Of a stretch of 64,000 nucleotides of DNA, positions 1 to 22,720 are shown piece after piece (the stretch's first letter is position 1; the number at the start of each line of letters is the position of its first letter). The position numbers were made by a program, and so were the translations under genes. Under the pieces are notes generated by a model. It had not been told where the DNA came from. It did no database searches and saw nothing but the letters and a program-made list of their open reading frames with translations. This DNA comes from Saururus chinensis (taxonomy: Eukaryota; Streptophyta; Magnoliopsida; Piperales; Saururaceae), in contig CP141148.1 in NCBI GenBank assembly GCA_035235625.1, forward strand, positions 16,431,057 through 16,495,056, in the 5' to 3' direction.

Positions 1-2577
1 ATAATTACATACTTATTTACTAAATTTGAAAGAATGAATCAAACGTACTAAATGACAAACCAATCAAACAATTTTTTATTAAGTTATATGTTTTTAATTG
101 ATTAAAACCGAAGTTAGTTAATAATGTACACGAATCTCTATATCATTTATAGTTTAAAGATACCTCTCATTCATTTTTTATGTTTATAATAAGGAATCAA
201 CTTAAAAAGTGATTCCACTATTTGACCGTTCTTTCTTAATTTATATGATTTCATTCTCTTAACTAGATTTAGAACAAAGCACTAAAGTTCGTCACAAATG
301 TATATTTAATTGTTTTAAATAGCTACGTACTAAATGATAGACAATTAGACCACTTTTGGCCAACTTATATCATTTTGATCGATTAAAACTGAAGTAAGTT
401 AAGAATGTGCACAAATCGTTATATCATTTAAAATTTAAAGAGACCTCTCATTCATTTGTTACGTTCGTAAGAATGAATTAAATTTACAAAGCGATTTCAC
501 AATTTGACCGGTCTATCTTAACTTATATGATTTCATTTGCTTAACTTGATTTAGAACAAATCACCAATGGTTATCATGAATGTATATTTAATTATTTAAA
601 ATAACTATGTACTCATTTGCTAAGTTCAAAAAAATGAATGAAACATATTAAACGACGAACCAATCAGTTAACTTTTGGTTAAGTCATATCGTTTTAATCA
701 ATTAAAATTAAAGTAAGTTAAAAATGTGTAAGAATCATTATATCGTTTATATAGTTTACAAAGACCTCCCATTAATTTATTAATTTCATAATAACAAATC
801 AAATTATCAACATGATTCTACAATTTGATTGTTTTACCTTAACTTATATGATTTCATTCTCTTAACTAGATTTAGAGCAAAACACCAAAGCTCGTAATGA
901 ATATAAAGTTAACTATTTTAAATAACTACATACTCATTTATTAAGTTCAAAATAATGATTTAAACGTACAAAATGATGAACTAATTAAACCACTTTTTGT
1001 CAAGTTATATCCTTTTAATCGATTAAAACCGAAGTAAGTTAAGAATGTGTGCAAATTATTATATCATTTATAGTTTAAAGAGACCTCCCATTGATTTGTT
1101 ACGTTCAAAATAACAAATCAAATTGATAAAGTGATTCCACAATTTGACTGTTCTTCCTTAACTTATATGATTTTATTCGCTTAAATAGATTTAGAACAAA
1201 GCCCCAAAGCTCCTCATGAATATATTTAATTATTTAAAATGAATGCGTACTCATTTACTAAGTTCAAAAGACTTAATTAAATGTACTAAAGAACAAACCA
1301 ATTAAACCATTTTTGCTCAAGTTATATCTATTTAATCGATTAAAACCGAAGTAAGTTAAGAATATACGCAAATCGTTATATCGTTTAAAGTTTAAAGAGA
1401 CATGTTATTCATTTTGTACCTTCGTAATAACTAAACAAATTGACAATGCGATTCCACAATTTGACCATTCTTCCTTAACTTATATGATTTTATTCACTTA
1501 ACTAGATTTAGAATAAAGCACTAAAGCTCATCACAAATGTATATTTAATTATTTTCAATAACGTACTCATTTGCTAAATTCAAAAGAATAAATCAAACAC
1601 ACTAAACGACAAACCAATCAAACCACTTATTGTCAAGTTATATCCTTTTAATTGATTAAAACCGAAGTAAGTTGAGAATGTATAGAAATCGTTATATCGT
1701 TTATAGTTTAAAGAGACCTCCCAATCATTTGGTATGTTTATAATAACAAATCAAATTAATAAAGTGATTCCACAATTTGACTGTTATTTCTTAATTTATA
1801 TGATTTTGTTCTCTTAAATAGATTTAAAATAATGCAGCAAAGCTCGTCACGAATATAATTTAATTATTTTAAATAACTACATACTCCTTTGTTAAGTTCG
1901 AAATAATGAATTAAACATACTAAACGATGAATTAATTGGACCACTTTTGGTCAAGTTATATCCTTTTGATCGATTAAACAGAAGTAAGTTAAGAATGTGC
2001 ACAAATCGTTATATCATTAAAGAGATCTCCTTAACTTATATGATTTTATTCGCTTAACTTGATTTAGAACATATCACCAAAGCTTGTCACAAATGTATAT
2101 TTAATTATTTAAAATAACTACATACTTATTTGTTAAGTTCGAAAGAATGAAACAAACATACTAAACGACAAACCAATCGGCTCGCTTTTTGTTAAGTTAT
2201 ATCCTTTTAATTGATTAAACTAAAGTTAAGAATATGCACAAATCTTTATATCATTTATAGTTTAAAGGCACCTCCCATTAATTTTTTACGTTCATAAAAA
2301 TGAATCAAATTAATAATGTGATTCCACAATTTGACCATTCTGCCTTAACTTATATGATTTTATTCCCTTAATTTTATTTAGAACAGTGCACCAAAGCTCG
2401 TCACAAATGTATATTTAATAGTTTTAAATAATAACATACTAATTTGCTAAGTTTAAAATCTTAAATTAAACATACTTAACAACGAAGCAATTGGACCACT
2501 TTTGGTCGAATTATATCCTTTTGATTGATTAGAACCAAAGTTAAGAATATGCACAAATTGTTATATCGTTTAAAGTT
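1..2577 (+). repeat. 319-bp tandem satellite, array 1 (forward)
   Basis: About eight head-to-tail degenerate monomers. The motif reading AACTAGATTT or a close variant recurs near 261, 543, 864, 1183 and 1500, giving spacings of about 317-321 bp except the first (282), where about 38 bp is deleted next to a repeated CGTAC. I call forward the strand that reads TTTTAATCGATTAAAACC. Short ORFs here are chance. The array stops abruptly at TTTAAAGTT near 2577, where pararetrovirus sequence begins. Confidence 0.95.
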
Positions 2578-2729
2578 GCAGCATCGTTCTAATCTTTGAC
2601 AACAAAGAACTGAATTATTCTCCTCCTAGAGATTAACTGCAAGATAACTAAAAGATCCTTGATAAGAGGCCTTTTTGTTGACGCCAAACTTGTGTCGTTG
2701 TGTTGGCATAGTTTCACGGAGTTCTTTAG

Positions 2730-2742
2730 TGGTATCAGAGCC
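2730..2742 (+). promoter_or_regulatory. tRNA-iMet primer-binding site of pararetrovirus A
   Basis: TGGTATCAGAGCC is complementary to the 3' end of plant initiator tRNA-Met, the usual primer for minus-strand DNA synthesis in caulimovirids and many plant LTR elements. No LTR ends upstream of it. An ATG opening the movement-protein frame starts only two bases downstream, at 2745. Confidence 0.85.
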
Positions 2743-2744
2743 CC

Positions 2745-3660
2745 ATGGTTCCTGTTAATCTACCATTACCATCAACCACTTACTATTCATCCTCTGCCTC
2801 AAGTCAAGATTTTCTGTATGAAGTTGAGTATGCCCCTTCCCGAGTCCCAGCCACCCGTTTTCCTTTTGTGAATCCTTACCAAGTTTTTGAGTTAAGTAAA
2901 GAGTCATATACCATGAAAAGCCTAAAAAAAAAATTTGGTTCTAAAACTCCTTTATGTGTTTAAAGAGTATGTTCAAGCCTCCTCTTTCTCCCAGAACCAG
3001 ATTCCAGCTGGTCCAAAGCAGTCCTTTCTCCCCATCACTTTGCCCAGCAGCCTCCATTAGCAATGGCAGACTGAAGGTTATACCCATCTCCATCTTGGAG
3101 CCTTCAAAGTTGCCCTCACCCTCCATGTCCGACCAGGGATGGAAATCGCCAGCAATCTTGCTCTCCCGTACACCCAGTTCCTCACATATAACCAGAGTGT
3201 ATGAGCCACTGTTCAAATTATGTTGAATGCTGGTATTGTTTTCCTTACATTGTATTCTAGCACAACATCTCTTTGCAAGATTCATTCTTGTTTAATTCTC
3301 TTTTTACCGAAGTTCAATTCTCTGGCCTAAATATGAGACCCGAAGCCATTGCCACCACACTCCACTACCAGCTTGCTTTCCGCCTCTAAAACCATGCTAT
3401 AAATCTTCCAGCCATAGGTCTCCACTAGTCGGTTGATGCTCTCATGCTGAAAATTGGCCCCCAAGGTGTTCATTGCACTTGTATCCCCAAGCGGCTCTCC
3501 AATGAGCGACTCTAGCAAATATTCCCAGCTAAGTGGATCACAGTAAATGAGACTTTTATGCAGACCACCAAGTCTTATGCTGATACCTCTCCTATTTTCA
3601 CCAGAAAAGCTGATGGCATTGTTGAAACTTAGTTCCCAACCAAGAATTTAGACAATGTGG
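2745..3660 (+). pseudogene. Movement-protein (30K) domain, broken
   Basis: Relic of the N-terminal movement domain of the polyprotein, which in caulimovirids makes tubules through plasmodesmata. The frame opens at ATG 2745 and stops at 2961-2963; homology then passes to another frame (about 2954-3226), showing a frameshift near 2930-2960 beside a run of A. The second piece has the hallmark pattern: a VALTLH-like strand, then an ALPYTQFL-like strand, then LNAGIVFLTLY. An in-frame stop falls within this piece's continuation, and after about 3230 matches become scattered over frames with many stops. I choose 2745 because it follows the primer site directly. The domain call rests on pattern, not on a search. 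Confidence 0.75.
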
Positions 3661-4739
3661 TCTTTTCCACACCTTTACTAGAAGTCAATGCCATTGACGA
3701 TATTGCACAACCAACACCTCACATCTGGTGGGATATTTACAATTGCAACCACTGCCTGGACTACCAGTTCAATATGCAGCATTTTGATCCCAACGAAAAC
3801 CTCCAAAGGAGAAAAAATTCCTCACATCAATAGCTAAAAAGGCGATATAAAGCAGGCGATCCTGAGGTTGATCTCGTAGGAGAACCCTCTAGTAAATTTG
3901 ACTATTATGTCTTGTACCCCAGAAGAAAGGAGCCCAATAAACTTTGTGGCTATTCCAAAGAGTTGCATGCCCTCGATGATGAAGATCCATGTCTACCCGG
4001 TGTTCGAACTCATACTACCATTGAAAATACTATCCCTCAAATTTTCTTGCTTGAACCAGAGTTCCCTTCTCTAGAAGATTATGAAGATTTAAAAAAGTAC
4101 ACCAAACATATATGGAAGATCCCAACACCGGTACGCCAAACCCTCTGACGGATGGCCTAGACAGATCTCTACCGCAGAAGCTACCCTAAACTGGTAGGCT
4201 GCAAATTCAGTCACTCAAAACAAGGCCCTTTCAAAGCTCCTCACTGAACAACAAAAGCTTACAACATTGGTCACTCTAAACTCCAGCCTTTTACATGAGC
4301 TACGAGCAAAGATCAATGACCTCCACCAAGAACTTCTTCATATTGTTTCCAAATGTCAAGATTTCTCCACTACCTCCAGACTCATTTCTTAGAAGGATGT
4401 AGAAAAAAGACACCTTGAAGTATATCTTAGAAGCCTCGAAGCCTCCCATGCCACTAAATCACTTCCCATTCCATGCTACCTAGCTTTTGCCACACTCTTT
4501 GGAAACCCCTCTTCCTACATTCCAAACTATCATCCGCAACCACTTATCCCTCCTCGCCACTCTGGCCTCTACCACAAACCTCTACTTGCCACTCCACCTC
4601 TCTCCAGCCAACCGCCTATTACTCCCCGACCTTCTAAACCCAACGTAAAGGCCCCCATCTTCTCCCCTGATAGAAGCATCCTCGCGACAGCCTTCTCATT
4701 ACTTCCCTATTGAAGAACCCAATCCCATTGCTTTATTTC
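3661..4739 (+). pseudogene. Polyprotein spacer between movement and coat domains, broken
   Basis: No recognised catalytic motif. One open piece (3912-4148, 78 codons) is acidic and Pro/Glu-rich. It is followed by a stretch (about 4200-4440) rich in Leu, Lys and Glu that could have been a coiled coil, then a Pro/Ser-rich low-complexity stretch (about 4460-4700). This order (acidic, coiled-coil-like, disordered) is common between movement and coat regions of caulimovirid polyproteins. Several stops interrupt it. Confidence 0.5.
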
Positions 4740-5533
4740 TCCAAGCATCTTGCTTACAAAACACCACTGGAGAAATCTACCTTGCATCCTCAAATGATTC
4801 CACCTCCATTGAGCTTGACTCAAGTTTTCCTGAACTCTTTGTGCAAGGTGACCCTACCATTCAGCAACCCTATGACTCTGAGCAATTTGGAGACATAAAA
4901 CATTAGCCAAATTTTGATCCTAATTTTGCTCCACCTTTTCCACAAAATACCAACAACAAGAAACTCTTTACCATTGATGATATTCTCCCCTCCAAATGGC
5001 ATGGCCATTTCATGGAAATATTTGCCTGGGGAACTGCAGAAATGGCTATTCCAAATGCCAACCTTAGAGATGTTCTTGCCAAGAACTCTTCTAGATTCAG
5101 TGGATGACTACATGAATGGTGGATAGCACTCAGCGAATAAAGACAGCTTCAGATTCTCCAGTCCAAAGAAATTTCTGAATTCATCGCCTACCTCTATAAT
5201 GAATTTCTTGGACAACTAGTGCTCCGACAAGAAACAGCACTAGAAGAATTCTTGAAAGCTAAAGTCTGTTCTTTCAACAAAAAGGACCTTAAAAAACACT
5301 ATATGCATATGTCAGCTCGTTTCCATGCTATCAATGGCATCGATGATGTCAACTTAAAGCAAGTGTTACTCCAATCCTTACCAGAGCCATCGGGCGATGA
5401 AACCAGACACATTATTGAATTCAAAGGAGATATCATAGGTAATCTCACCCTCAGACAAATTTATCAGTTAAGTCTCACTGCTGTCGATAGGCTATCAACC
5501 AGTCCAAGTTCATCAAGTGCCTCCAAAAAATAG
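4740..5533 (+). pseudogene. Coat-protein-like domain, broken
   Basis: One frame can be followed with interruptions from about 4740 to 5533. It includes an FTIDDI-type motif followed by a conserved Trp near 4970-5000 and the longest open piece, 5219-5533 (104 codons), whose KKDLKKHYMHM stretch and Leu-rich helices resemble the capsid region upstream of the zinc knuckle in caulimovirids. Stops lie near 4903 and again before 5219. It sits directly before the zinc knuckle, as expected. Assignment is by position and pattern, with moderate confidence. Confidence 0.6.
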
Positions 5534-5730
5534 GACAAAAACTTGGAAAAGCCTGCCTTCGACCAGACTTATAGATCAAAATGCAAGGGTGACAATGGTT
5601 GCACTTGTTCTACCAAAAAGAAGTTTCATTTTCACAAATCAAGATTCTCTTGGAAAAATAGATTTGTTAGACCCAAGCAGAAATGAAGATTTTTTTCAAA
5701 AAAGGACCATGACACAAAAAATTGAGCAAA

Positions 5731-5772
5731 TGCTTTCTTTGTGGAAAATCTGGACACTTTGCTTGCTAATGT
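5731..5772 (+). pseudogene. CCHC zinc knuckle of pararetrovirus A, with internal stop
   Basis: The translation reads CFLCGKSGHFAC, a stop, then C. The C-x2-C-x4-H-x4-C spacing is complete only across the TAA stop at the thirteenth codon. Zinc knuckles at the coat C-terminus bind viral RNA. Just upstream is a Lys/Phe-rich basic segment with frameshifts, also usual for the family. Confidence 0.8.
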
Positions 5773-5817
5773 CTAGCATAGAACAAGCCCTGCAAAGCTC
5801 AATTCATTCAGCAAGCA

Positions 5818-6363
5818 ATGGCGATCATCCAACGGGAGTTCCATGATCTTCAATTAGAACTCTCAATCAATGAGTATAATTCAGATATTGTTCTTCAACT
5901 AGAATATTCTAGTTTTGGAAATAGTTCTGATGACGACTCTGATGACCAATCTGAACTTTTGGAATTGATGGCTTTCCTGAATTATTTGCTACGCAACCCT
6001 CTCCTCTCCTTCCTGTTACTCTTCACCTTGGCTTCACTACCATTCCCCTCATTGCTTTTCTTGATATAGGAGCGTATCGCTCAATTCTTAAGCCTTCTTA
6101 CTCAACCATAGTTATTGGCATCCCCACAGCCAGTATTTCAAAATTGCTGATGGAAATTCCTTCCATATTGACAAGATTGGTAAGCCCTTTACCATCTCCT
6201 TATTCCCTTCTTTACAGATCACCCATCCATTTCTTAGGTCCCCTCTCACTAGAATAGATGTCATTATTGGGTTTGATATCCTCCATAAACTGCTTCAACT
6301 CAAGTGGAAGCCCTATGGATTATCCTACAAAGACGAATTTTCCCCCGGGCTACTATTAAGTTA
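5818..6363 (+). pseudogene. Aspartic protease domain of pararetrovirus A, broken and 3'-truncated
   Basis: An open piece, 5818-6069 (83 codons), starts with a Gln/Glu- and Asp/Ser-rich linker. Around 6051-6090 another frame carries FLDIGAYRS, matching the retropepsin active-site loop (D-T/S-G) but with Ile in place of Thr/Ser. Near 6260-6330 a VIIGFDIL motif matches the conserved C-terminal strand of these proteases. The match needs a frame change between the pieces. Reverse transcriptase should follow, but the sequence breaks at 6363 into reversed satellite. Confidence 0.7.
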
Positions 6364-9300
6364 AGGAAGAATAGTCAAATTGTAGAATCACTTTTGATTT
6401 GTTATTATGAATGAAACAAATGAATAGGAGGTTTTTTTTAAAATTTAAATGATACAACAATTTATGTGTGAACTTACTTCGGTTTTAATAGATCAAAAGG
6501 TTATAACTTGACCAAAAGAGGCCTAATTGGTTCGTTCTTTAGTACCTTTAATTCATTCTTTTGAACTTAGCAAATGAGTATGTATTAATTTAAAATAATT
6601 TAATATAAATTTGTGATGAGCTTTAATGCTTTGTACTAAATCTAGTTAAGCTAAAGAAATCATATAAATTAAAGAAAATTGGTCAAATTGTGGCATCACT
6701 TTGTGAATTTGTTTCGTTATTACAAACATAAGAAATAAATGGGAGGTCTCTCTAAACTTTAAACAATATAAGGATTTGTGCATATTTTTAACTTACTTCG
6801 GTTTTAATTGATCGAAAGGATATAACTTGACCAAAAAGGGTCCGATTGGTTCGTCGTTTAGTACGTTTGATTTATTCTTTTGAACTTAACAAATATATAT
6901 GTATTCTTTAAAAAAATTAAATATACATTCGTCAAGAGCTTTAGTGCTTTGTTTTAAATCTAGTTAAATGAATTAAATCATATAAGCTGAGAAAGAACTG
7001 TCAAATTGTGGAGTCAAATTGTCACTTTGATTCATTATTACAAACATAACAATTGAATGAGAGGTCTCTTTAAACTTTAAATAATATATCAATTTATGCA
7101 CATTCTTAACTTACTTCAGTTTTAATCGATTAAAAGGATATAACTTGACCAAAAGTGGTCTGATTTGTTCATCATTTTGTGCATTTAATTAATTCCTACA
7201 AACTTAGTAAATGAATATGTATTTATTCAAAAAAATTAAATAAACATTTGTGACGAATGGACTAATTATGGAATCACTTAGTTAATTTAATTTGTTATTA
7301 CAAACGTAACATATGAATGAGAATGTGCACATTCTTAACTTTGGTTTTATTCGATTAAGCTGATATAACTTAACCAAAAGTGATCCGATTCATTCGTTGT
7401 TTAATATGTTTAATTCATTATTTTACACTTAGCAAATGAGTATATAATTATTTATAATAATTAAAGATACATTCGTGACGGGCTTTGGTGCTTCTTTATA
7501 AATATATTAAAGCAAATAAAAACATATAAGTTAAGGAAAAACGGTCAAATTATGGAATCACTTTGTTGATTTGATTCGTTATTATGAATATAACAATTAA
7601 ATGGGAGGGCTTTTTAAACTTTAAACAATACAAAGATTTATGTACATTCTTAACTTACTTCGGTTTTAATAGATCAAAAGGATAGACCAAAAGGGGCCTG
7701 ATTGGTTCATCGTTTAGTACATTTAATTCATTCTTTTGAACTTAGCAAATAAGTATATATTAATTTAAAAAATTAAATATACATTTGTGACTAGCTTCTA
7801 AATTTATTTAAGCGAATAAAATAATATAAATTAAGGAAGAACGGTCAAATTATAAAATTACTTTATAACATAGATTCGATATTACAAACGTAACAATTAA
7901 ATGAGAGGTCTCTTTAAACTTTAAACGATATAACGATTTATACACATTCTTAACTTACTTTAGTTTTAATCAATTAAAAGGATATAACTTAACTAAAAGG
8001 GGTCCAATTGGTTCATCATTTAGTACGTTTGATTTATTATTTTAAACTTATTAAATAAATATATATTTATTTAAAATAATTAAATATACATTCATCATGA
8101 GCTTTGGTGCTTTGTTCTAAATCTAGTTAAGCAAATTAAATCATAGATATTAAGGAAGAATGGTAAAATTGTGGTATCGCTTTATTAATATGATTCATTA
8201 TTATGAACTTAACAAATTAATGAGAGGTCTCTTTAAACTTTAAATAATATAATGATTTATGCACATTCCTAACTCACTTTGATTTTAATCGATTAAACTG
8301 ATATAACTTGACCAAAAGTGGTCCAATTAGTTTGTTATTTTGTACGTTTAATTCATTCTTTCTAGCAAATGATCATGTATTCATCTTAAATAATTAAAAA
8401 TATATTTGTGACAATCTTTAGTATTTCATTCTAATTATAGTTAAGCAAATAAAAACATAAAAGCTAAGGAAGAATAGTCAAATTGTGGAATCACTTTGTA
8501 AATTTTATTCATTATTACAAATGTAACAAATGAATGGGAGGTCTCTTTGAACTTTAAATGATATAACATTTGTGCATATTCTTAACTTACTTCGGATTTA
8601 ATCAATCAGAAGGATATATAACTTTACCAAAAGGGGTCTAATTGGTTTTGTCATTTAGTACATTTAATTAATTCTTTTCAACTTAGCAAATGAACATGTT
8701 TTCATCTAAAATAATTAAATAAACATTCATGACAAGCTTTAGTGCTTTATTCTAAATCTAGTTAATAAAATAAAATCAAATAAGTTAAGGAAGATTGGTT
8801 AAATTGCGGAATCAGTTTGTTAAATTAATTAGTTTTTACAAATGTAACAAATGATATAATGATTGTTATAAATCTATATAAGTGAATAAAGCTTATATGA
8901 TTGGTTAAATTGCGGAATGGTTGATGTTTTTAAACTATAAACGATATAATGATTTGGGCACATTCTTAACTTAATTCAGTTTTAATCGATTAAAATGATA
9001 TAACTTGACAAAAAGTGGGACGATTGGTTCGTCATTTAGTACGTTTGATTTATTATTTCGAACGTGGCAAATGAGTATGCAGTTATTTAAAATAATTACA
9101 TATACATTCGTGATGAACTTTAATACTTTGTTATAAATCTACTTAAGCGAATAAAATCATATAAGCTAAGGAAGAATGGTAAAATTATGGAATCACTTTG
9201 TCATTTTGATTCATTATTACGAATGTAACAAATGAATGAGATGTATTTTTAAGTTTTAAATGATATAACGATTTGTGGACATTCTAAACTTACTTTGATT

Positions 9301-12300
9301 AGTCGATCAAAAGGAGGTAACTTCACCAAAAGGGGTCTGATTGGTTCGTCGATTAGTACGTTTGATTCATTATTTTGAATTTAGCAAATGAATACGTATT
9401 CATTTAAAACAATTAAAATACATTCGTCATGAGCTTTGGAGCTTTGTTTTAAATCTAGTTAAGCGAATGAAATTATTTAAATTAAAGAAGGACGGTTAAA
9501 TTGTGGTGTTACTTTTTCAATATGATTTATTATTATGAACGTAACAAATAAATAATGAGTAGTTTCTTTAACTTTAAATGATATGAAGATTTGTACACAT
9601 TTTTACTTTGGTTTTAATCAATTAAACTAATATAATTTTACCAAAAATGGTCTAATTATTCATTGTATAAGTTTAATTCATTTTTTTAAAGTTAGCAAAT
9701 GAGTGTGTATTAATTTAAAATAATTAAATATACATTCGTAACGAGCTTTAGTACTTCGTTCTAAATATAGTTCAGCAAATAAAAATATATAAACTAAATA
9801 AGAATGATCAAATTATGGAATAACTTTGTCAATTTGATTCGTTATTACGAACATAACAAATGAATGAGAGGTATTTTAAGACTTTAAACGAAATAACGAT
9901 TTGTGCACATTCTTAACTTACTTTGGTTTTAATTGATTGAAATGATATAAAATGACCAAAAGGGGTTCGATTGGTTCATCGTTTAGTACATTTAATTTAT
10001 TCTTTTCAACTTAGCAAATGAATACATATTCTTTAAAACAATTAAATATACTTTCGTCAAGAGCTTTAGTGCTTTGTCTATATCTAGTTAAGCAAATAAA
10101 ATCATATAAGCTAAGAAAGAATGGTTAAATTATAGTATCACTTTGCGCTTTTATTTTTTATTACGAATGTAACAAATGAATGTGAGGTCTCTTTAAACTT
10201 TGAATTATATAACGATTTGTACATATTCTTAACTTACTTTGGCTTAAATCGAATAAACTGATATAACTTGACCAAAGTGGTCCGATTGGTTCATTGTTTA
10301 GTATATTTAAATCATTCTTTAAAACTTTGCAAATGAGTATTTATTTATTTAAAATAATTAAATATACATTTATGACGAGCTTTAGTACTTCGTTCTAAAT
10401 ATGGTTAAGCAAATAGAAACATATAAGCTAAGGAAGAAAAGTTAAATTGTGGAATCACTTTATTAATTTATTTGTCATTGCAAATATAACAAATGAATAA
10501 GAGGTTTCTTTAAACTATAAACGATTTAACGATTTGTGCACATTCTTAACTTATTTCAGTTTTAATCGATCAAAAAGATATAACTTGACCCAAAGGGGTC
10601 TAATTGGTTCATCGTTTAGTACATTTAATTCATTATTTTGAACTTAGTAAATAAGAATTTTCTTTTAAAATAATTAAATAGACATTCATGACAAGCTTTT
10701 GTGCTTTGTTCTAAATCTATTTAATCAGATATAATCATATAAGTTAAGAAAGAATGGTCAAATTGTGAAATCACTTTGTTAAATTGATTCGTTATTACAA
10801 ACGTAACAAATGGATGAGATGTCACTTTAAAATTTAAACGATATAAGGATTTGTGTACATTTTTAACTTCGGTTTTAATCAATAAAAAGGATATAACTTT
10901 ACCAAAATGGGTCCGATTGGTTTGTCATTTATTCAGTTTAATTTTTTCTTTTGAACTTAGAAAATGAGTACGTATTAACTTAAAATAGTTAAATATACAT
11001 TCATGATGAGCTTTGGTATTGTTCTAAATCTAGTTGAGCGAATAAAATTATATAAATTAAGGAAGAATTGTCAAATTATAGAATCTCTTTAAACTATAAA
11101 CGATGTAACAATTTGTGCACATTTTTATCTTACTTCAGTTTTAATGGATTAAAAGGATATAACTTGACCAAAAGGAGTCCAATTAGTTCGTCGTTTGGTA
11201 CATTTAATTCATTCTTTTAAACTTAGAAAATAAGTACATTTTCTTTAAAATGATTAAATATGTATTCGTGACAAGCTTTGATGCTTTGTTCTAAATCTAA
11301 TTAATAGAATAAAAATATATGGTTCTTTGTTTTAAATCTAGTTAAGTAAATTAAATCATAAAACTTAAGGAAGATGGTCAAATTGTGGAATCACTTTGTT
11401 AATTTGATTCATTTTTACGAACTTAATAACTGAATGGGAGGTCTCTTTAAAGTATAAATAGTATATTAATTATTTTTGTGTACATTCTTAACTTATTCGG
11501 TTTTAATCGATTAACAGAATATATAACTTAACAAAAAATGGTCTGATTGATTCGTCATTAACATTTGATTCATTCTTTTGAAAGTAGCAAATGAGTATGT
11601 AGTTGTTTAAAATAATTAAATATAAATTCGTAACGAGCTTTGATGCTTTGTTCTAAATATAGTTAAACGAATGAAATCATATAAATTAATTGAAGAACGG
11701 TCAAATTGTGGAATCACTTTGTCAATTTGATTCATTATTATGAACGTAACAAACGAATATGAGTTCTCTTTAAACTTTAAACTATATAACAATTTGTTTA
11801 TATTCTTGACTTACTTTGGTTTTAATCGATAAAAAGGATACAACTTGACCAAAAGTGATTGGATTGGTTCGTTGTTTACTATGTTTAATTAATTCTTTTG
11901 AACATCGCAAATGAGGTCATTTTATTTTGAAACAATTAAATATTCATTCCTGACGAGCTTTAGTACTTTGTTCTAAATCTAGTTAAGTGAATAAAATCAT
12001 ATAAGTTAAGGTAGACGGTCGAATTGTAGAATCACATTGTTAATTTGATTCGTTATTGTGAACATAAAAAATGAATGAGATGTCTCTTTAAACTATAAAT
12101 GATATAACGATTTGAGCACATTCTTAACTTACTTCGGTTTTAATCGATTAAAAGGATAACTTGACTAAAAGGGGTCCAATTGGTTACTCGTTTAGTACAT
12201 TTGATTTAATATTTTGAACTTAGCAAATAAGTACATATTCATTTAAAATAATTAAATATCAATTCATGACGAGCTATGGTATTTTGTTCTCAATATATTA

Positions 12301-13032
12301 AAGCGAATAAAATCATAAAAGTTAAGGAGCAATGGTCAAATTGTGGAATCACTTTATCAATTTAATTAGTTATTACGAACATAATAAATGAATGAGAACT
12401 CTCCTTAAACTTTAAATGATATAATGATTTGTGTACATTTTTAACTTACTTCGATTTTAATCGATCAAAAGGATATGACTTGAAAAAAGGGGTCTGATTG
12501 GTTCATCTTTTTGTACATTTGTTTCATTCTTTCAAACATAAGAAATAAGTACACATTTATTTAAAAAAATTAAAGATACATTCATGACGAGCTTTTGTGC
12601 TTTTTTCTAAATGTAGTTAAGCGAATGAAATTAAATCAGTTAAGGAAAAACGGTCAAATTGTGGTATCACTTTGTCAATTTGATTTGTTCTTATGAACGT
12701 AACAAATGAATGAGAAGTCTCTTTAAACTATAAATGATATAATGATTTGTGCACATTCTTAACTTATTCTTTTTTAATCGATTAAAAGGATATGACTTAA
12801 CCAAAAGTGGTCCGATTGGTTTGTCGTTATGTTTGAATCATTATTTCGAACTTAGCAAATGAATACGTATTTATTTAAAAAAATAAATATACATTCGTAA
12901 AGAGCTTTGGGGCTTTGTTCTAAATCAAGTTAAACAAATGAAATCATATATAAGTTAAGGAAGAACGGTCAAATATTGGAATCGCTTTGTCAATTTGATT
13001 CGTTATTATGAACGTAACAAATGAATGGGAGG
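6364..13032 (-). repeat. 319-bp tandem satellite, array 2 (reversed)
   Basis: About 21 degenerate monomers of the same satellite, now reading CGGTTTTAATCGATTAAAA on the given strand. Several monomers have internal deletions (for example around 7255-7330, 8840-8940 and 11080). Both ends abut pararetrovirus A sequence: its protease at 6363 and its ORF tail at 13033. Nothing else was seen inside. Confidence 0.95.
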
Positions 13033-13859
13033 ACTCATTGGGGGCCTTGGTTGTTTGGTGGAGTGGGTAGGTGGTTCCATTACAAAGAGTTAGGTGGGGT
13101 CTACCTAAAAATAACCCTTCCCCATTCTTCACGTGCTTAATTGTTGGGCATCATGCACATGCTTCATCCAGAATTATCTATGTCATAGTCACTAGATGAA
13201 TAGTAGGGATTAGGGTCCTGGGAATCCCAGTCTCGAGTTGGCGTGAGGCAGTATATGCTGACAAAAGCATATAATCCTCGCAAATATAGGTCTCAATCAC
13301 CACTGGCAAAAGGATACGCCAAGATATGTGATGAAATGTCCGCATAGTACACTCCACTCAGACTTGCCATGTGTATCTTGAAGTGATAGAAGTCATCTGA
13401 GTACCAGTGATAATTCTGTGACAAATCAATATTTGTCCATTGGAGGATTCTGACGGGTTCTCAATGTATGGGATGAAGAAATTGGCATCGGGAGTGGTAA
13501 CAAAATCCTGTGACTGATGATTGATGGAGGCTGATCTGGACAAATGCACTATCGACCTCGTTTAGCAAGGTTTGCCATTGCTGAATAGGAAGAACCATTC
13601 CAACAGTATCTTTACTCCGAAAGGCATGCTCAGAGAGGTTCCGATGGACCTAGATCTAGAATAGATAATCTGATAGGTGTCCGACATTAAAAAAGATGGA
13701 GATACGCCATTTTTCAATGATGGCTATAATAAGAGACAAAAGACTTCCTTAGGGCAATAGTAGTAATTTCAAAAACCGAAAGGGCAGAGATAGGCATAGT
13801 TGGGGTGCAGTATTTGGAAGAAAACAAGTCTATTTAGGACTAGGAGAATTTCAAGGTAG
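13033..13859 (-). pseudogene. Pararetrovirus A, C-terminal tail, broken
   Basis: Reverse-strand continuation of the RNase H fragment at 17713-18130 after removal of the intervening LTR-type element. Short open pieces lie at 13358-13549 (63 codons) and 12944-13132, in different frames and broken by stops. I recognise no motif. It is assigned to the virus because it continues directly from RNase H across a clean 5-bp target duplication. The junction with satellite at 13032/13033 is sharp (ATGAATGGGAGG, then non-satellite). Confidence 0.6.
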
Positions 13860-13864
13860 GCAGT
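13860..13864. repeat. Target-site duplication GCAGT (left)
   Basis: GCAGT directly precedes TGTCACG. The same five bases follow the other end of the element at 17708-17712, as left by retroviral-type integration. Confidence 0.85.
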
Positions 13865-14479
13865 TGTCACGCCCCGGCGATGCCCGACCCGAGCCGAACC
13901 CGGTCCAAGGGCCGGTCAAGCGCGCGGGGGCGACGAAGGGAAAATTAGAAATGGTTTAGCGGAAGACTTAACCCTAACCACGGGCGACTTAACAGAAATA
14001 CGGAGTACGCACATTCCTTTGAGCAAGAGTAAATAAGAAGAAAAGAAAGAGAGTTGCTTAACACAAAGTAAACAACTAATCTCAAACCCACATGCTTAGT
14101 CAACTATAGCCACACTGGCTCAAAATAAGTCTTAAGCAACACAACTATAAAATGTGATAAAATCCAACAGAGAACCCTACACAAAGGTTATAAACATAAA
14201 GTATAAACCAAGGAAAATAAGTCACACAAAGATCTCCACAATCACATCCAAGTCATCTCCGACCTTTCCACAAAGAGGAGATCCTGTCCATTTGCGTGTC
14301 GCATCACGCAACCCCAAAGCAAAACACAAGAAAGAGGGGTGAGTTTAACAAACTCAGCAAAGGTTTTTAATATAACTATCATCATCGAAGATACGATAGC
14401 ATAGCAATATAATCATTCAGATCAAAGATTTGGAAGGTGCATTATTTTTTGATCACACATACACATCACCTAAACCTGC

Positions 14480-14965
14480 ATTATAGTGCATGATCCACAT
14501 AGTGTCATTCACATCATAACAATCTATATGGAATGTATCTCTAGCTTACATATCCAATCATGTATCACATCATAATAACCTGCATCAAATGTATCTCTAA
14601 CATATATATCAATCATGCTTCAACAACCATATCAATCCTGCATGAGATGTATCTCTAACATACATATTCAATCGTGCATCCATCATATCAATCTGCATAA
14701 GATGTATCTCTAACATACATATTCTATCATGCATCACATCATAACAACCTGCATGAATGTATCTCTAATATACATATTCCATCATGCATCATATCATAAC
14801 AACCTGCATGAATGTATCTCTAACATACATATTCCATCATGCATCATATTATAACAACCTGCATAAATGTATCTCTAACATACATATTCCATCATGCATC
14901 ATATCATAACAACCTGCATGAATGTATCTCTAACATACATATTAAGTCATGCATCACGTCATATA
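14480..14965. repeat. 55-bp minisatellite inside the LTR-type element
   Basis: About eight copies of a unit containing ATGTATCTCTAACATACAT and CATCATGCATCA. The motif ATCTCTAA recurs exactly at 14761, 14816 and 14871. The copies around 14761-14940 are nearly identical; those toward 14480 are more diverged. Confidence 0.9.
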
Positions 14966-15044
14966 AGGAATGCCTCCCTCAAGGAGTAAAACACAATCAT
15001 TGCCACAAGTCTGGACGTGGTCCAAATTTCCTAACTGGAAACCT

Positions 15045-15320
15045 GGGGCATTGCTCGCTCAGGACACAGTCCGAATTCCATAAGAGAAACCAAGATGTAG
15101 GGGTAGTCAGCCCCTCTGCTCGCTAAGGATAATCCACACGGGAAATCCGAATTCCCCAAAGGAAACCTAGAGCAGGTCTGCTCGCTAAGGACAATTCTGG
15201 CCAAGAACGTCCAAATTCCACGTAGGGAACCTAGAGCAGGGTGTTCGCTAAGGACATCTCTACGGTGGGGAGAGTCCAAATTCCCGCATTGGGAACCTAG
15301 AACATGTGGTAGCCAGTGCA
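15045..15320. repeat. 62-65-bp minisatellite inside the LTR-type element
   Basis: Four to five diverged units marked by GCTCGCTAAGG (15053, 15118, 15180, 15243), each with a CCAAATTCC or CCGAATTCC motif and GGAACCTAGAGCAGG. The ORFs on both strands here come from this repeat and are not genes. Related units occur at about 59285-59510. Confidence 0.85.
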
Positions 15321-16464
15321 CGAAGGCATACCACTCTGGGTGCTCAGTGTCCAGATGTGACTATTCTCAATAAATAAATCTCAACCGCAACAAGTATACG
15401 ACTCGTCCTCATATAATCTCATCTTGACTTAACTCAACCCGGGGAGTGCACATGTTCCACACAGGAACTCAAATCAAAACATGTCCTTTCAGACTAATCA
15501 AGTTTCGATTAAGCCACGACCGATTAAACCGGCACACAATTTTACCACATTGCATCCAATCGATCAAATTCGATTAACCTCGATAAAGCCTCGGAGTGTA
15601 CACGTAAAAATACTTCTATGTCGACTCTAGTCCTCGCGTCCCATACCATGAGTATTCATGACGCCATAGAAGTAAATTTAACTAAGCACTAGCGCAACGA
15701 ACCTTAGAGCTATCAATTGACATAATGCGTCCCATACCACAAGTGTCTAATGGTTTCTCCTCGGCTGTTCCACACAACCGATTAATTGGAAATACATTTT
15801 CATGATGCATGCAACATGGTACATACATGGGCAAAGCATACATGAATCCTAATTCATAATAAGTGCTCTCATCAGCTCCTAATGCATCATTTATGATCAT
15901 AATATCATGCTTCAATATCATCATTAAACCCCACATGTGTGTGCGCACATAGTAAAAGCACTTCACTCAATGTTTATCAACATGCTTGTAATTCACTCAC
16001 CATTACACTACACATGAGAATTAACATCTAATCATGAATTCTAGCGGAAATCATAGGAGAAGAATCATCAAAACCATAACTCAAATCAAAACTCAACCAC
16101 AAGGGCTAAAACACATATAAGATCATTCATTTCATCCTTAAGCCATGACATTCACCAACATCCACACACCAACTAACCACATTCTATAATGACAAATCAG
16201 TCCATTAATAGGTTGTAGTTCTACTAAAAATATGCTTAACCATAGAGAATCAACCATTCATAATTTTAAGATGACAATTCCAACATCATGCCACAAACCA
16301 TAAGTCATTCCACAAATCTCTAATTATATATCTCAACTTCATAACCTCAATAGTGTGCCTATCTAGTAGCATAATATAGTTTAAAACACTCCACATTCAT
16401 ATAAAATTGGCAAGTTAAAGTAGAATCATCGAAATAAACATCATACAAATTGAACAACATTCTA

Positions 16465-16652
16465 CTGTGTAGCCGTTCGAACGCCCAGTAGGCCGTTCGA
16501 TCAGTTAAACAGAAAATTTTCACATTCACAATTTGGCTGTTCGAACGCCCAGAAGGCCATTCGATCGGCTAAACTGGAAAAATGTCAAAACTGCAGTGTT
16601 GCCGTTCGAACTCCATGTATGGCTGTTCGAACGCCAACAAGGCAGATTCGAC
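16465..16652. repeat. TTCGAA-rich short repeat cluster
   Basis: Seven copies of a GCCGTTCGAACGCCCA-type motif or its half CCGTTCGATC, most in pairs, within 190 bp. Most copies carry the palindrome TTCGAA. It is more GC-rich than its surroundings. Function unknown. Confidence 0.75.
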
Positions 16653-17306
16653 CTTCTTCTTCCTTTCGCAATTTCAAATCGAAACTCCATTGATAATACT
16701 TCAAATCATCATCTAACAACCTAAATACCATCAAAAGTCCACCATGACTTCCAAAATGCTAAACCATATCATAACAAGATAAAACCCTATTAAATCGGGA
16801 TTAAATATTACTATTTACTAATCATGCCATTAAAGTACTAAATCAAGTAATTCCATTCAAAACAAACTACAAAATCAAGAGTTTTACCATAAGAAGACTG
16901 AAATTTCGAATGTCCATTACCTTATCTTTTGATTAGGCTTGGATTTGATAGTCACCCTTCTTGAAAACCTTACAAAGACATAGAGTTTGAATTAAACTCC
17001 ATTAAAACCAATTTAACAAAGAAAACCCTAATTAAAAACTTAGATCTAGGGCTTGTTGAATATAAAAATTGAATTTTGAGAGCTAGGGTTTGTAGTAAAA
17101 ATGCAAATTAGTAGTTTTGGTGTTTAAAAATGAATTGAAACAAAGGGGAAATGGTAGATTTAGAAAGGATTAAGAAGAAAGCTAGGATTTAGTACTTAAT
17201 TAGAATGGGCTTACCTTAAACACCTTCTAATCCGGGCCTAATTGGGGATTAGGCCTGACCTCTCCTCCTCAGCCTATTCCCAAAATGGGAATAGCTCAGG
17301 TTTGGC

Positions 17307-17315
17307 CTTTTATAG
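17307..17315 (-). promoter_or_regulatory. TATA box of the LTR-type element
   Basis: The minus strand reads TATAAAAGG, about 393 bases downstream of the TGTAAGATCC end. It is conserved in the related fragment (61606-61613) and in position in the larger element (56281-56289). Transcription would run toward lower coordinates. Confidence 0.6.
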
Positions 17316-17707
17316 TAAGGGTTGGGGTGTAAATAGAAAAGTAGGCTAAAAATGAATATTTTACAAATTTGAGCATTAATTAAGTCTAAGAAAATTCTAA
17401 ATTTTTTTGTATAAGTTGATGTCTGGGTCCATTTGACATAAAAACCAAAATTTCGACGGTGGGGCCCATAGGGGTCCCGCCAAAACCCTAATTTTTGGAA
17501 AAAATAGTAAAAATTCAGAAAAATCCCAAAAATTTATATTTGTTTCAAAATTACTTAAAACCACCAATCTTAAAGTTGATTTTGATTAAAACTATCATAA
17601 ACACCATTTATTTACGAAACCATCGAATAAATCAGAAAATGCGTTAACCTCACAATAACCGATAATTAAAAGAAAACAAAAACCGGTTTAAGATTAGGGA
17701 TCTTACA

Positions 17708-17712
17708 GCAGT
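17708..17712. repeat. Target-site duplication GCAGT (right)
   Basis: Matches 13860-13864 and directly follows the TTACA end of the LTR-type element. Confidence 0.85.
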
Positions 17713-18130
17713 GATGGAGGTGATAGTCCGCAGTGGAAAAGTGAGAGTTTCTAGTAAATTGAGAATTTCTGGAGGGAGGTTTTCTCATTCTTCAAGATGG
17801 AGTAGGTCAAGGAATAGGTTTTGCGGTGAAGAAGGTAGTGGTTGAGAAGGCTGCAGGCAGGAGAGAAAATCAGCAAGAATATTGTCCTTTCCTTTATTCT
17901 TTTTTACTTGGGAACTTCCATTGGGAAAACCAATCATGCCAGCATAAACTTGTGCACTAGGCAACTGCTTTTGCTTGAAGTGCAACATCTGAGGGAAAGC
18001 GTTCATATCCATTTCCACTAAATTTATGACCTATTAAGAAGAACTGGAATTTTGTAATGGCTATTTTTACTGCAAGGATCTCTTTGTATGTGTGTGCTCC
18101 GCATGTGTTCGTGAAGGTGCAGTCAGGTAG
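17713..18130 (-). pseudogene. RNase H domain of pararetrovirus A, broken
   Basis: On the minus strand from about 18130 the translation gives HTYKEILAVK and then KFQFFLIGH, the conserved core of caulimovirid RNase H. It ends with GKDNILADFLS, the typical closing motif of the domain; this lies in the open piece 18018-17785 (77 codons). A frame change occurs between the two. RNase H degrades the RNA template during reverse transcription. The reverse transcriptase that should precede it is absent: forward-reading pararetrovirus B begins at about 18131. The sequence continues at 13859 after the LTR-type insertion. Confidence 0.8.
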
Positions 18131-18678
18131 TGTAGGAGAAGGAGAGGACTTTCTTCCTTTCGGGGAAGGAGGGGGTTTCCCTTTCCATTTTTCCCCTTCC
18201 TCTCTTATGCTTGTTATTATGTTGCAAGGTTGTTAGATTACTTGCTTAGTTTTACTTGTTATGAGAAGGCTGAGATTTCTTCTCTCACTTGAGTCTGAAG
18301 TGATATGGTGTTTATGTTATCTTTTATGTCTTCCCAAAATAAATAGAGCCAAGGCGTTATCCCGTTTATCTGATGTTGTCTAAGGGAGTTAGTCATTCTG
18401 CCTCATTTGTTCATAGAGGGATTATGTAAGAGATGATGTTGTGCCAATTTTATTATGGAGGATAAAAGTAAAAGATGGAATGCTAGCCAATTTTATTGTA
18501 ATAAGTAAAACAAGGTATTTTTTACCTCTTTGCTTTATAAACAAATGCTTCTTTGATTTCTCTTTTGGTTAGAGTTTCTTCTTGCAAAAGAAGTGTTTCT
18601 AATCTCTTTTCCTATTTTCCCTATGATCTTGACTTTGTTTTCAGAATACATGTGAGCACTCTTAACTTATTATCATTG
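18131..18678 (+). promoter_or_regulatory. Leader/intergenic region upstream of pararetrovirus B movement protein
   Basis: No convincing gene. It begins at an abrupt junction with reversed pararetrovirus A. It contains a hairpin-prone C/G-rich start (CTTTCGGGGAAGGAGG region), several short ATG frames, and a TATA-like TTTATAAACA at 18534-18543 in a T/A-rich context. I could not find a tRNA-iMet primer site. It probably represents the viral RNA leader, with the TATA-like site a possible second promoter or a chance match. Confidence 0.5.
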
Positions 18679-19836
18679 ATGTTTTCCAGATTATTTTATA
18701 AACCAGAAAATTTTATTAAGAATTCTGAAGTTGAGGAATTTTTCAACATAGAGAATCATCTTAGAAATTGGCATCTACCTGAGGTAGAGCCTAAAAAGGT
18801 TTATAATATTGGAACCTTTGATTTAAAAACTAGTGTTTCAGTAAAGACTACTGAACAAACAATCCCCATTGATGATAGTAATAAGACTATCCAACTATTA
18901 AGGGAACAAGATCTTTCTCATTATATGGATAAATATAAATATTTGCATATTGGCCTTATCTAGGTTGCTTTAAAGCCCTTAACTTTAGAAGGTTTAAATA
19001 CTTGCTTTATTTTATGTCGACGTAATGCTAGATGCTTAAATTTTCAGCAATCTCTTATGGGTGTTATTGAATCTACCTTATCTAATGGTCCAGTCTATTT
19101 TGACTATTTTCCTAATTTATGTTTATCCTTATCTGATAATAATCTTCTAGATGCCGTTACGTTAGATTTAGAATATATGGGTTATGATTTTAAACAAGGA
19201 TCTGAGCACATAAATGTGGCTTATCGTATTTATTATAAAGTAATAAACACCTTAACCCCTAATATAAGACTTATAAGCACTAAAGGTAAAACCACCCTAA
19301 TTAAGACAAATCTTAAAAGATCCAATGTTGCGGTTAAAAAACTAATCAATTGGAATGAAATTCAATTCCCAGAAAGATGGAATTTACAAAGTGCTATTCC
19401 TCAACAACCCCTAATAAATAGGGATCTAGATCAAATTGTTCAAACTCCAGATAGAGATGTTGGAATAAGATTTTCTAATTTTAGAAGTACAAAACTTAAT
19501 TATTCTAATAGAGGAAGCACTTCTTCTAGAAATTCTATTTCTGAAAGAATTTTAATTGACAAATTATCACCTTATGAGGTTGAAGAAGTCCATACTTCCA
19601 ATCTAAATATTCCACATGGGATCTATATGAAGAATTCTTCCCCTACTATGACAGAAATGGAGTTTCAAATATCTACGGTTCAATATGAATTTCATGTTGA
19701 TAGAAACATGATCAATCAAGAATTTTATTTACCAAAAAATAAACTTTTTAGGGATTGGTATTTTCAGATTATGGAGTATAAAGAAATGTATTATAAATTC
19801 TTATATGATAATAGAATTGCTATCTATTTCAAATAA
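18679..19836 (+). pseudogene. Movement protein of pararetrovirus B, one frame with stops
   Basis: One frame runs from ATG 18679 to 19836 with a single internal stop at 18961-18963. I prefer ATG 18679 to 18553 because the upstream codons look like leader translation. The core reads LHIGLI, VALKPLT, then a DGP/NGPVYFDYFPN-like strand and LSLSDNNLLDA; these are the defining blocks of caulimovirid movement proteins, closest in style to badnavirus-type viruses. The protein would bind nucleic acid and open plasmodesmata. Double stops at 19834-19839 end this part. Composition is very A/T- and Lys/Asn/Ile-rich, unlike pararetrovirus A, so B is a different virus. Confidence 0.85.
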
Positions 19837-19872
19837 TGATTTGAAACTTATAGTTCCTATAACAACAAAAAT

Positions 19873-21210
19873 ATGATGGTTATAACTGATCATTATAAAA
19901 ATTGGACTACTAAAGAAAGAAAGAATTTAAGATCCATATATTCTCCTTCTAGTCCTCTACAAATAAATAATAATAACCAAATTTTGGAAACCACTCTTTT
20001 TTCCCAAATTACGGGAGACAATACAAATCTTTTATGCCAAACTATTATAAAACAAAATAATCATACAAATCTAAATCTACAAACCATCAATAATCAATTA
20101 ATCAGAATTGAAGACCAAATAGGAAAATTTTTCTATAACTCAATATCCCAACCTAGTTCTTCCAGTTTGACCCCAATGATAAAACCTCCCATAACAATTC
20201 CTGATTTCAAACTTGGAAAAGCTCAACCTTGTGATAATGAGTTTCTTGAACAACTCACTAGAAGATTGATAAATCTTAACATTAATAAACCTAATAGGCA
20301 GCTCCAACTAGGACTTATTACCCTCGTCCTACACCCATTGACCTTCTTTATGAAGAAGATCGAATTGTTACTGTTGCAGTCTTTGATCCTAGTAGTATTT
20401 ATGAATGGAATATAGATGGATTATCTGAATATTTAATCTCTATTATCCTTCATCAGACGTTAATGTATGCAACTGTTAGTAGAGCTACAAAAATATAGAT
20501 AAACAAGTAACTTTGTTTATAACAGCTGGATTTACAGGCCAATTAAAAGGCTGGTGGGATCATATCCATCAACAAAAAGACGAAATTCTTAATTCCAAAA
20601 GAATAATTACCTATACTACCATAGATGAAAAAGGACAAATCCTTTATATTCAAATTGAAACTGATGATTCTATATATACTTTAATTCAAAGTATATTAAA
20701 ACATTTTGTGGGAAATACTTTGTCAACCATGACAGGAATAAAGAATTACTTATGAATCTTAAATGTCCCACCTTAACTCATTTTAGGTGGTATAAAGATA
20801 TCTTTCTTTCTAAAGTTATGCATCTTGAGGCTGGTAATAGCCAATTCTGAAAAGGGAAGTTTATTTCTGGACTTCGACTAATGTTTGCTGAAAAAGTCAG
20901 AACTAGACTTAGAGATAAATTAGGATCTCAATCTATTAATTACGATAATTATACTTATGGAGAACTTATTAGTGAATGTATTACAAAAGGATTATCTCTG
21001 TGTAATGATATTAATTTAAAAAATCAGCTTAAAAAGCAAAACATTATAGGAAAACAAGAAATAGGGCAATTCTGTGAACAACTTGGTTATAATACGGGTC
21101 TTTCTTATCCACAAAGACACAATAAAAAATCATCTCATAAAAAAACTAAACAAAGGTATAAATCTAAAAGGAAAATTGAAAAAAGAAGTAAAAAAGAAAA
21201 ACCTAAAGAA
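19873..21210 (+). pseudogene. Coat/capsid region of pararetrovirus B, frameshifted
   Basis: Continues the same frame (19873-20415), shifts to another (20513-20755), then returns (20881 onward). The first piece is Asn/Gln-rich with a repetitive helix (about 20010-20130) that could be a coiled coil. The middle piece has a GQLKGWWDH motif, typical of the capsid core of badnavirus-type viruses. The last part before the zinc knuckle is a strongly basic Lys/Arg tract (about 21115-21205). At least two frameshifts near 20340-20510 and 20755-20880 prevent one open frame. Coat identity is inferred from order and the WWDH-type motif. Confidence 0.75.
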
Positions 21211-21216
21211 ATCACT

Positions 21217-21258
21217 TGTTTCAAGTGTAATAAAAAAGGTCATTATGCCAATAGATGC
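21217..21258 (+). pseudogene. CCHC zinc knuckle of pararetrovirus B (intact motif)
   Basis: The translation CFKCNKKGHYANRC has perfect C-x2-C-x4-H-x4-C spacing. It follows a Lys/Arg-rich stretch and precedes an acidic Glu/Asp-rich tail (about 21260-21450). This is the usual end of a caulimovirid coat protein. The frame continues open to a stop at 21568-21570. Confidence 0.9.
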
Positions 21259-21588
21259 AAAAATCCAAAATCCGAAGAAATTAAGGATACGATTAATAAA
21301 ATCGTAGAAGACGATGATCTGACACAAAAATTATATAATCTTTTCATAGAAGATAATGAAGAAAACAGTGCTATTTCTTCAGAAGAAGATATTCTTCAAA
21401 TTGATGATATTTCATCCACCTCATATTCTTACACAGAAAAAAATATTGAAGAGTGTTCTTGTACAAGAACACATGATTATTATTTAGCTATTTTAAACAT
21501 GAATGGTTTAAGTCTAAATGTATTAACTGCTAATCAGTCTTTTATATTAGATCTTATAGATCAAATTTAAGATCCTCCATCTAGAAGG

Positions 21589-22322
21589 ATGGCTATTGAA
21601 AAATATATGGATAATTTCTTAGATGAATCAAATAAATCTCAAATAAATTATAAATCTATAATTCCCTATATTAAATTAGAAGTCTACAATAGAATGAAAG
21701 AACCTAGAAAAGGAAATGAAATTTATAGAGGGGACTTAAAAGAAGAAAATTTTAAACTTCAAGAAGAAATAAAATTTCTAAAACTTAGAATTACAAATCT
21801 AGAAAACTCTAAAGAGATTCTTAATATAAAAGAACATGATGAAATTCATCAAGAGAACAATAAAGAAATAAATGATTACTTACAAATTATTAATAATCTT
21901 ACCTATAAAAAATGGATTATAAATATCAAACTAGTAATAAATAAGAATTTTAATATTGAAACTATTGCCCTGATAGACTTAGGAGCTGATATGAATTGCA
22001 TCAAGGAAGGACTAATTCCTATTAAATATTTTAAAAAAATAGATCAATCTTTGAATACTGTTGATGGCAGCACAATATTTATACAACATAAATTATTAAA
22101 CTCTTATATTAATAATAATGGAATATGTATTCGAGTAAACTTAGTCTTAATAAGAAACTTAACACAATATATGATATTAAGAACTCCCTTCCTAAACATG
22201 ATCCAACCCATTGAAATTGATTATGAAGGCATTAAAACCATAATAAATGAAAAAGAAATAATGTTCCCATTTGTTTCACAATCCTTGATAGGTCTTATAG
22301 ACCAAGTCAAAGAAAGTTTGAT
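21589..22322 (+). pseudogene. Coiled-coil linker and aspartic protease of pararetrovirus B
   Basis: Open from 21589 until the LTR insertion at 22323 (the ORF runs on into LTR sequence and stops at 22447-22449). An N-terminal Glu/Lys/Leu-rich stretch (about 21735-21900) looks like a coiled coil. IDLGADMNCI follows at about 21973-22002, with the catalytic Asp codon at 21976; this is the retropepsin loop with Leu in the usual Thr/Ser position. The ILRTPFLNMI stretch near 22170-22205 fits the conserved hydrophobic strand near the protease end. Reverse transcriptase would be expected next, but none follows on the far side of the insertion at 25386. Confidence 0.8.
22318..22322. repeat. Target-site duplication TTGAT (left)
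   Basis: TTGAT precedes the TGTTGTGGACG end of the LTR element; the same five bases follow it at 25386-25390. Confidence 0.9.
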
Positions 22323-22657: not shown

Positions 22658-22720
22658 TTCCACCACGCTTCGCTTGCGCATCACCTCGTCCTCAAGGTGG
22701 CATCAAAACTCTAGACATCG
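22658..22720 (-). pseudogene. Remnant of gypsy pol 3' end and polypurine tract
   Basis: The minus strand reads GCCACCTTGAGGACGAGGTG, then a purine-rich GAAGCGTGGTGGAA directly before the LTR. The autonomous element has the equivalent TTGCCTTGCGGACAAGGCG and AAGCATGGTGGAG before its LTR (48738-48785). This is the C-terminal end of the polyprotein plus the polypurine tract that primes plus-strand DNA. Confidence 0.7.

What the first reader, a model, noticed from the sequence alone, without database searches (positions are those of the whole stretch)
2578..18130. One 11.8-kb inversion explains the satellite strand switch and the split pararetrovirus
Forward satellite meets the 5' half of pararetrovirus A (ending after protease at 6363); then come reversed satellite and reversed RNase H plus tail of a pararetrovirus (13033-18130). 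Mentally flipping 6364-18130 makes satellite arrays 1, 2 and 3 all forward and puts protease then RNase H in order. It also brings the two satellite edges to ATCGTTTAAAGTT and CCTCCCATTC, which in the monomer are only about 8 bases apart (TAAAGAGA). That phase match is unlikely by chance. Reverse transcriptase is missing at the breakpoint, so a deletion of viral sequence went with it.
Basis: partly seen in the sequence, partly recalled or inferred. Interest (0 to 1): 0.85.

Follow-up and report, generated by a model that had tools for sequence, protein, structure and literature searches.

The report
Plant virus relic split by inversion
An old plant virus copy that had landed in a satellite-DNA array seems to have been cut in two when a stretch of about 12 kb flipped over, and a second virus relic now lies at the far end of the flipped stretch; such scrambled virus relics are common in plant genomes.

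Summary
The layout is real with corrected edges: satellite + (1-2577), virus A 5' part (2578-6356), satellite - (6357-13039), reversed virus A 3' part (13040-18130), satellite + from 27377. Three quarters of 13040-18130 is not virus but a nested 3.8-kb solo LTR with a GCAGT target duplication. The reversed 3' pieces have virus A's unusual base composition. So an inversion through virus A is the best explanation (about 0.7). Against a simple version: the second edge pair is about 160 bp out of phase; a third strand switch (61.2-62.0 kb) is unexplained; other edge pairs are also near phase; the 18130 junction meets a different virus (B), either there before or captured as filler at the break. 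No reference virus, sister allele or read data could be consulted; the genome search did not complete. Rearranged pararetrovirus relics are well known. Low to moderate interest.

The parts
1..2577 (+). satellite array 1 (about 319-bp monomer), ends at monomer index 65
   Evidence: BLAST of TRF consensus, edge alignment
2578..6356 (+). virus A, 5' part: leader, primer site at 2730, decayed movement, zinc-knuckle and protease region (coat inferred from position)
   Evidence: primer site, MP Pfam E 0.025 below cut-off, motifs
6357..13039 (-). satellite array 2, reversed; satellite-sense start at 13039 = index 66, end at 6357 = index 155
13040..13864 (-). virus A, 3' tail after RNase H, contiguous with the RNase H piece before the LTR insertion
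   Evidence: composition, target duplication
13865..17707 (+). nested solo LTR, TG...CA, 3,843 bp, target duplication GCAGT at 13860-13864 and 17708-17712
   Evidence: truncated copy with the same end at 61191-62024, 87%
17708..18130 (-). virus A, RNase H piece (YKEILAVK at 18088)
   Evidence: motif, PF17919 E 0.066 below cut-off, composition
18131..22322 (+). virus B, 5' part: leader-like stretch, movement protein, zinc knuckle, protease; first ~100 bp of uncertain origin
   Evidence: PF01107 E 1.3e-10, PF00098 E 0.00017, PF00077 E 0.0013; for the first 100 bp
22323..25385 (.). LTR element inside virus B, target duplication TTGAT, LTRs 94% alike, carrying GC-rich DNA with an antisense PA-domain ORF
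25391..27376 (+). virus B, 3' part: large ORFs, TATA-like at 27153, AATAAA at 27303; RT and RNase H not found in the pieces tested
27377..48215 (+). satellite array 3, starts at monomer index 315 with a broken first monomer

Best explanation
A near unit-length caulimovirid (virus A), opened in its leader, integrated into a forward satellite array at monomer position 65/66 with almost no loss of satellite. Later the chromosome broke inside virus A (between protease and RNase H) and again downstream in or at the edge of the satellite. The segment holding the virus A 3' end plus 6.7 kb of satellite was rejoined in reverse by end joining, and the viral reverse-transcriptase region was lost at the break. 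A second virus (B) now bridges the right-hand join. It either stood at that border already or, as I think slightly more likely, was captured there as filler. Orientation, phase and gene order are shown; identity of the two A parts as one virus, order of events, end joining and B's role are inferred.
For: Satellite orientation +/-/+ with no strand switch inside any array. Outer edges 2577 and 13039 are in phase to 1 bp with 14 of 17 reference monomers and to 0-3 bp with all 17; the satellite-only empty site scores 247 against 241 +/- 34 for 300 contiguous array-3 pieces and 154 +/- 36 for 1000 random joins. Within 1 bp it is the only one of 24 edge pairs. Polarity: the head of A abuts a satellite END and its tail a satellite START, while the inner ends are post-protease and RNase H. 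Sense-strand composition of the reversed RNase H piece is within 0.029 of A5' (2 of 4308 overlapping control windows as close) and that of the tail within 0.074 (2 of 4212). Of seven trinucleotide models, the A5' sense-strand model fits both pieces best; GC is 0.42 in the three A pieces against 0.29 and 0.33 in B. The target duplication around the solo LTR shows that RNase H piece and tail were contiguous. No inverted repeat links the two breakpoints, which argues for end joining.
Against: The second edge pair (6357 END 155, 27377 START 315) is about 160 bp out of phase. A third strand switch at 61.2-62.0 kb needs another event. Other edge pairs are also near phase, 5 of 24 within 8 bp against 1.3 expected, so edges are not placed at random. 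Monomers of array 3 are 0.79-0.81 alike at every lag tested, so similarity could not show that arrays 1 and 2 were once joined. A5' pieces gave no Pfam match above cut-off, and two A pieces gave no relative in IMG/VR or the protein set, so identity of the two halves rests on composition, motifs and content.
Confidence: 0.7

Rival explanations
1. The reader's literal version, a sub-case of the inversion: virus B was already inserted between arrays 2 and 3, and the inversion (6364-18130) broke just at the satellite/B border.
For: B is bounded by virus A on one side and by satellite on the other, and keeps its leader-like start and its promoter-like end.
Against: Needs the right break to coincide with B's border, and the flanking satellite edges are about 160 bp out of phase. 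Apart from satellite, 5857-6857 shows only chance matches to the left end of B and none to the right end (at most four matches per pair shown).
Confidence: 0.3
2. Two independent partial insertions of A-like viruses, one forward and one reversed, in a satellite block whose arrays differ in orientation for other reasons.
For: A third strand switch exists, several other edge pairs are near phase, and inverted and truncated fragments are usual for such loci (passages of PMC1899175, and PMC526188).
Against: Requires complementary content, matching composition, opposite polarity and a 1-bp phase match all by coincidence.
Confidence: 0.2
3. Misassembly: one or both junctions (6356/6357, 18130/18131) are false joins in a repeat-rich region.
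For: Satellite and transposon-rich region; no reads could be checked.
Against: The restored phase of 1 bp is not expected from a random false join; nested insertions with intact target duplications suggest the neighbourhood is coherent.
Confidence: 0.08

Closest known systems
Endogenous caulimovirids / pararetroviral sequences (ERTBV of rice, LycEPRV of tomato, eBSV of banana)
   Same: Decayed, truncated, partly inverted copies, in tomato in pericentromeric heterochromatin next to retrotransposons; integration proposed to occur at double-strand breaks with viral DNA as filler (passages of PMC10377300, PMC526188, PMC1899175).
   Different: Here the phase of a satellite points to a separate later inversion that also carried 6.7 kb of satellite, rather than to scrambling of viral DNA at integration.
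End-joining inversion with breakpoint deletion and filler DNA (general knowledge)
   Same: No inverted repeats at the two breaks; sequence apparently lost at the left break; foreign DNA at the right one.
   Different: The possible filler would be a virus copy of about 6 kb.

Membership tests
Caulimovirid relic (virus A) | tRNA-Met primer binding site TGGTATCAGAGC (motif recalled) | tested here: met
   at 2730
Caulimovirid relic (virus A) | movement protein | tested here: inconclusive
   PF01107 E 0.025 on one 42-aa piece, below cut-off
Caulimovirid relic (virus A) | zinc knuckle then aspartic protease in order | tested here: inconclusive
   motifs at 5731 and 6063; three pieces over the protease gave no Pfam match; the knuckle piece was not given to Pfam
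Caulimovirid relic (virus A) | reverse transcriptase | tested here: not met
   no match in the pieces and with the patterns tried; read as a deletion, so A is called a relic by its other features
Caulimovirid relic (virus A) | RNase H | tested here: inconclusive
   YKEILAVK motif, PF17919 E 0.066 below cut-off
Caulimovirid relic (virus B) | movement protein, zinc knuckle, protease | tested here: met
   PF01107 1.3e-10 and PF00098 0.00017 above cut-off; PF00077 0.0013 slightly below
Caulimovirid relic (virus B) | reverse transcriptase and RNase H | tested here: not met
   no match in the B pieces given to Pfam or by motif; 25391-25699 was not given to Pfam
Simple inversion | orientation restored on both sides | tested here: met
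Simple inversion | phase restored at the outer pair of edges | tested here: met
   1 bp
Simple inversion | phase restored at the second pair | tested here: not met
   about 160 bp off; a deletion would explain it
Inversion by recombination between inverted repeats | inverted repeats at both breaks | tested here: not met
   best match between 5857-6857 and 17631-18631 is 12 bp, E 0.12
Simple inversion | uninverted allele in other accessions | not testable with these tools
   The genome search did not complete
Solo LTR | TG...CA ends, target duplication, second copy with the same end | tested here: met
   GCAGT on both sides; second, truncated copy ends alike at 61191
Solo LTR | no internal coding region | not tested
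   its frames were not given to Pfam; one search lists two frames of at least 100 aa there, of 100 and 109 aa

The most novel reading that the evidence does not exclude
Virus B was captured as filler DNA in the very repair that made the inversion, so that one break in an older virus relic and one in satellite were sealed with the DNA of a second virus: a recorded case of viral endogenisation as a by-product of a chromosomal inversion.
Probability: 0.3. Interest if true: 0.5.

Novelty: new member of a known kind. Interest (0 to 1): 0.3.

Why it matters
The monomer phase of a satellite acts as a ruler that can separate scrambling at viral integration from later chromosomal inversion. If virus B proves to be filler at the break, the locus would support the proposal that pararetroviruses enter plant chromosomes through break repair.

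Tried and rejected
Monomer similarity as a test of former contiguity of arrays 1 and 2: no signal, identity 0.79-0.81 at the lags tested in array 3. Relatives of two A pieces in IMG/VR (24 and 12 pattern stretches, none confirmed) and in the protein set (23 and 1 candidates, none accepted; length limits of that search hide full-length polyproteins). A pattern scan for an RNase H octapeptide in IMG/VR gave 2 contigs of 42 and 29 kb that I did not read. PDB by sequence for the RNase H piece: two phage capsid chains at E above 1. Rfam: 0 matches in the window. Recombination between inverted repeats at the breaks: rejected. Similarity between A and B: no DNA match and only weak, short piece matches. 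A print search for filler viral DNA at inversion breakpoints in plant genomes gave 0 papers for those four terms together; papers holding 'endogenous pararetrovirus', 'satellite' and 'inversion' were 2, seen as a listing only; only open-licence PMC papers are held.
Full report
Layout. The window looks like plant heterochromatin: a satellite of about 319 bp in six arrays, + 1-2577, - 6357-13039 (gap 8860-8928), + 27377-48215, + 58131-58730, + 59952-61189 and - 62036-63998, interrupted by virus relics, LTR elements and plastid-like DNA. No array switches strand within itself; the three switches in the window lie at inserted, non-satellite DNA.

Virus A. The 5' part (2578-6356) starts 152 bases before the primer site at 2730, then shows a weak movement-protein match (E 0.025), a CCHC-like motif at 5731 and a DIGA motif at 6063, and stops at the satellite at 6357. 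Its longest + strand stop-to-stop frame is 130 aa, against 290 aa wholly inside virus B, so A looks the older relic. The reversed 3' part consists of an RNase H piece (17708-18130, minus; YKEILAVK at 18088, PF17919 E 0.066) and a tail (13040-13864, minus). Between them lies a 3,843-bp solo LTR (13865-17707) with GCAGT on both sides. Its CA end is confirmed by a second, truncated copy at 61191-62024, 87% alike over 841 aligned positions. The duplication shows that RNase H piece and tail were contiguous before the LTR arrived. A simple scan found no TATAWA or AATAAA in 13040-13200 or 2578-2745 (+ strand letters only, so it says nothing about the minus-sense tail).

Same virus? No reference could be obtained, so base composition was used. 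The sense strand of the RNase H piece (17706-18130) has A .308 C .264 G .153 T .275, against A5' .295 .262 .156 .287. Only 2 of 4308 control windows elsewhere in the window, both strands, are as close; for the tail 2 of 4212. Control windows overlap, so these are not independent counts; all four close ones lie near 55.9 kb. Of seven trinucleotide models the A5' sense-strand model fits both pieces best. Virus B differs (GC 0.287 and 0.331). This supports, but does not prove, that the parts are one virus.

Phase. Array 1 ends at monomer index 65. Array 2, read in satellite sense, begins at index 66 at base 13039. The joined satellite flanks score 247; 300 contiguous array-3 pieces score 241 +/- 34, 1000 random joins of array-3 pieces 154 +/- 36, and 28 of those 1000 reach 247. 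As a control I compared all 24 END x START pairs of array edges: one within 1 bp (this one; 0.23 expected), five within 8 bp (1.3 expected), seven within 15 bp (2.3 expected). The start index of array 3 was first set by eye at 314; alignment gives 315, and skipping its broken first monomer would give 287 or 237, with 4 or 3 pairs within 8 bp and still only this pair within 1 bp. Seven of the ten edges fall in one stretch of the monomer (index 261 to 1), so edges cluster there; 65/66 lies outside it. One of the near-phase pairs (48215/58131) flanks an insert with a likely CGTTA duplication.

Against a simple inversion. The other pair that the inversion should restore, 6357 (END 155) and 27377 (START 315), is about 160 bp out. 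The third strand switch at 61.2-62.0 kb, beside a truncated copy of the same LTR family, needs another event. Monomers of array 3 are equally alike at all lags tested, so no test of former neighbourhood was possible. The two breakpoint regions share no inverted repeat (best 12 bp, E 0.12), which speaks for end joining.

Virus B. At 18131 the reversed virus A meets a different, AT-rich, better preserved virus on + with movement protein (E 1.3e-10), zinc knuckle and protease. It is interrupted at 22323-25385 by an LTR element (TTGAT duplication, LTRs 94% alike) and runs on to 27376 after a TATA-like box and AATAAA. No RT or RNase H turned up in the pieces tested. The first ~100 bp after 18131 fit neither virus clearly. 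If B stood there first, the break fell on its border by coincidence. If B was captured at the break, no coincidence is needed, and the 160-bp offset is a loss of satellite at that break. I favour the latter slightly, by inference only; insertion of B after the inversion is also possible.

Known background. A review passage states that integration is thought to use double-strand break repair with viral DNA as filler and that rearranged multicopy loci are frequent (PMC10377300, passages). Rice copies show deletions, insertions, inversions and duplications (PMC526188, passages). Tomato copies are truncated, some inverted, nearly all adjoin transposable elements, and they lie mainly in pericentromeric heterochromatin (PMC1899175, passages). 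The locus is therefore a new example of a known kind; what is unusual is that the satellite gives a base-level ruler for the event.

Noticed in passing
61189-62036: A third satellite strand switch (+ to -) lies at a truncated copy (61191-62024) of the same LTR family as the solo LTR at 13865-17707; a second event like the first may have broken inside an inserted element.
   Followed up: partly
22323-25385: LTR element with 94% identical LTRs and TTGAT duplication, filled with GC-rich DNA that encodes an antisense PA-domain ORF (PF02225 E 4e-08): possible capture of host gene sequence.
   Followed up: partly
48207-58137: Large insert in the satellite with a likely CGTTA duplication, holding Ty3/gypsy genes between two direct repeats (48412-48735 and 53313-53636, 94% alike) and rpoB/rpoC1-like DNA at 56505-58027 that looks plastid-derived (not tested further).
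   Followed up: partly
6356/18130 and 22322/25391: In both virus relics, though different, no reverse transcriptase was found after the protease; in virus B no RNase H either.
   Followed up: no
satellite edges from 27377 to 62036: Seven of ten array edges fall in one stretch of the monomer (index 261 to 1), as if it were a preferred site of insertion or breakage.
   Followed up: no
58731-59951: Diverged pieces of the same long LTR family (70-85% alike, reversed) lie between satellite arrays 4 and 5.
   Followed up: partly
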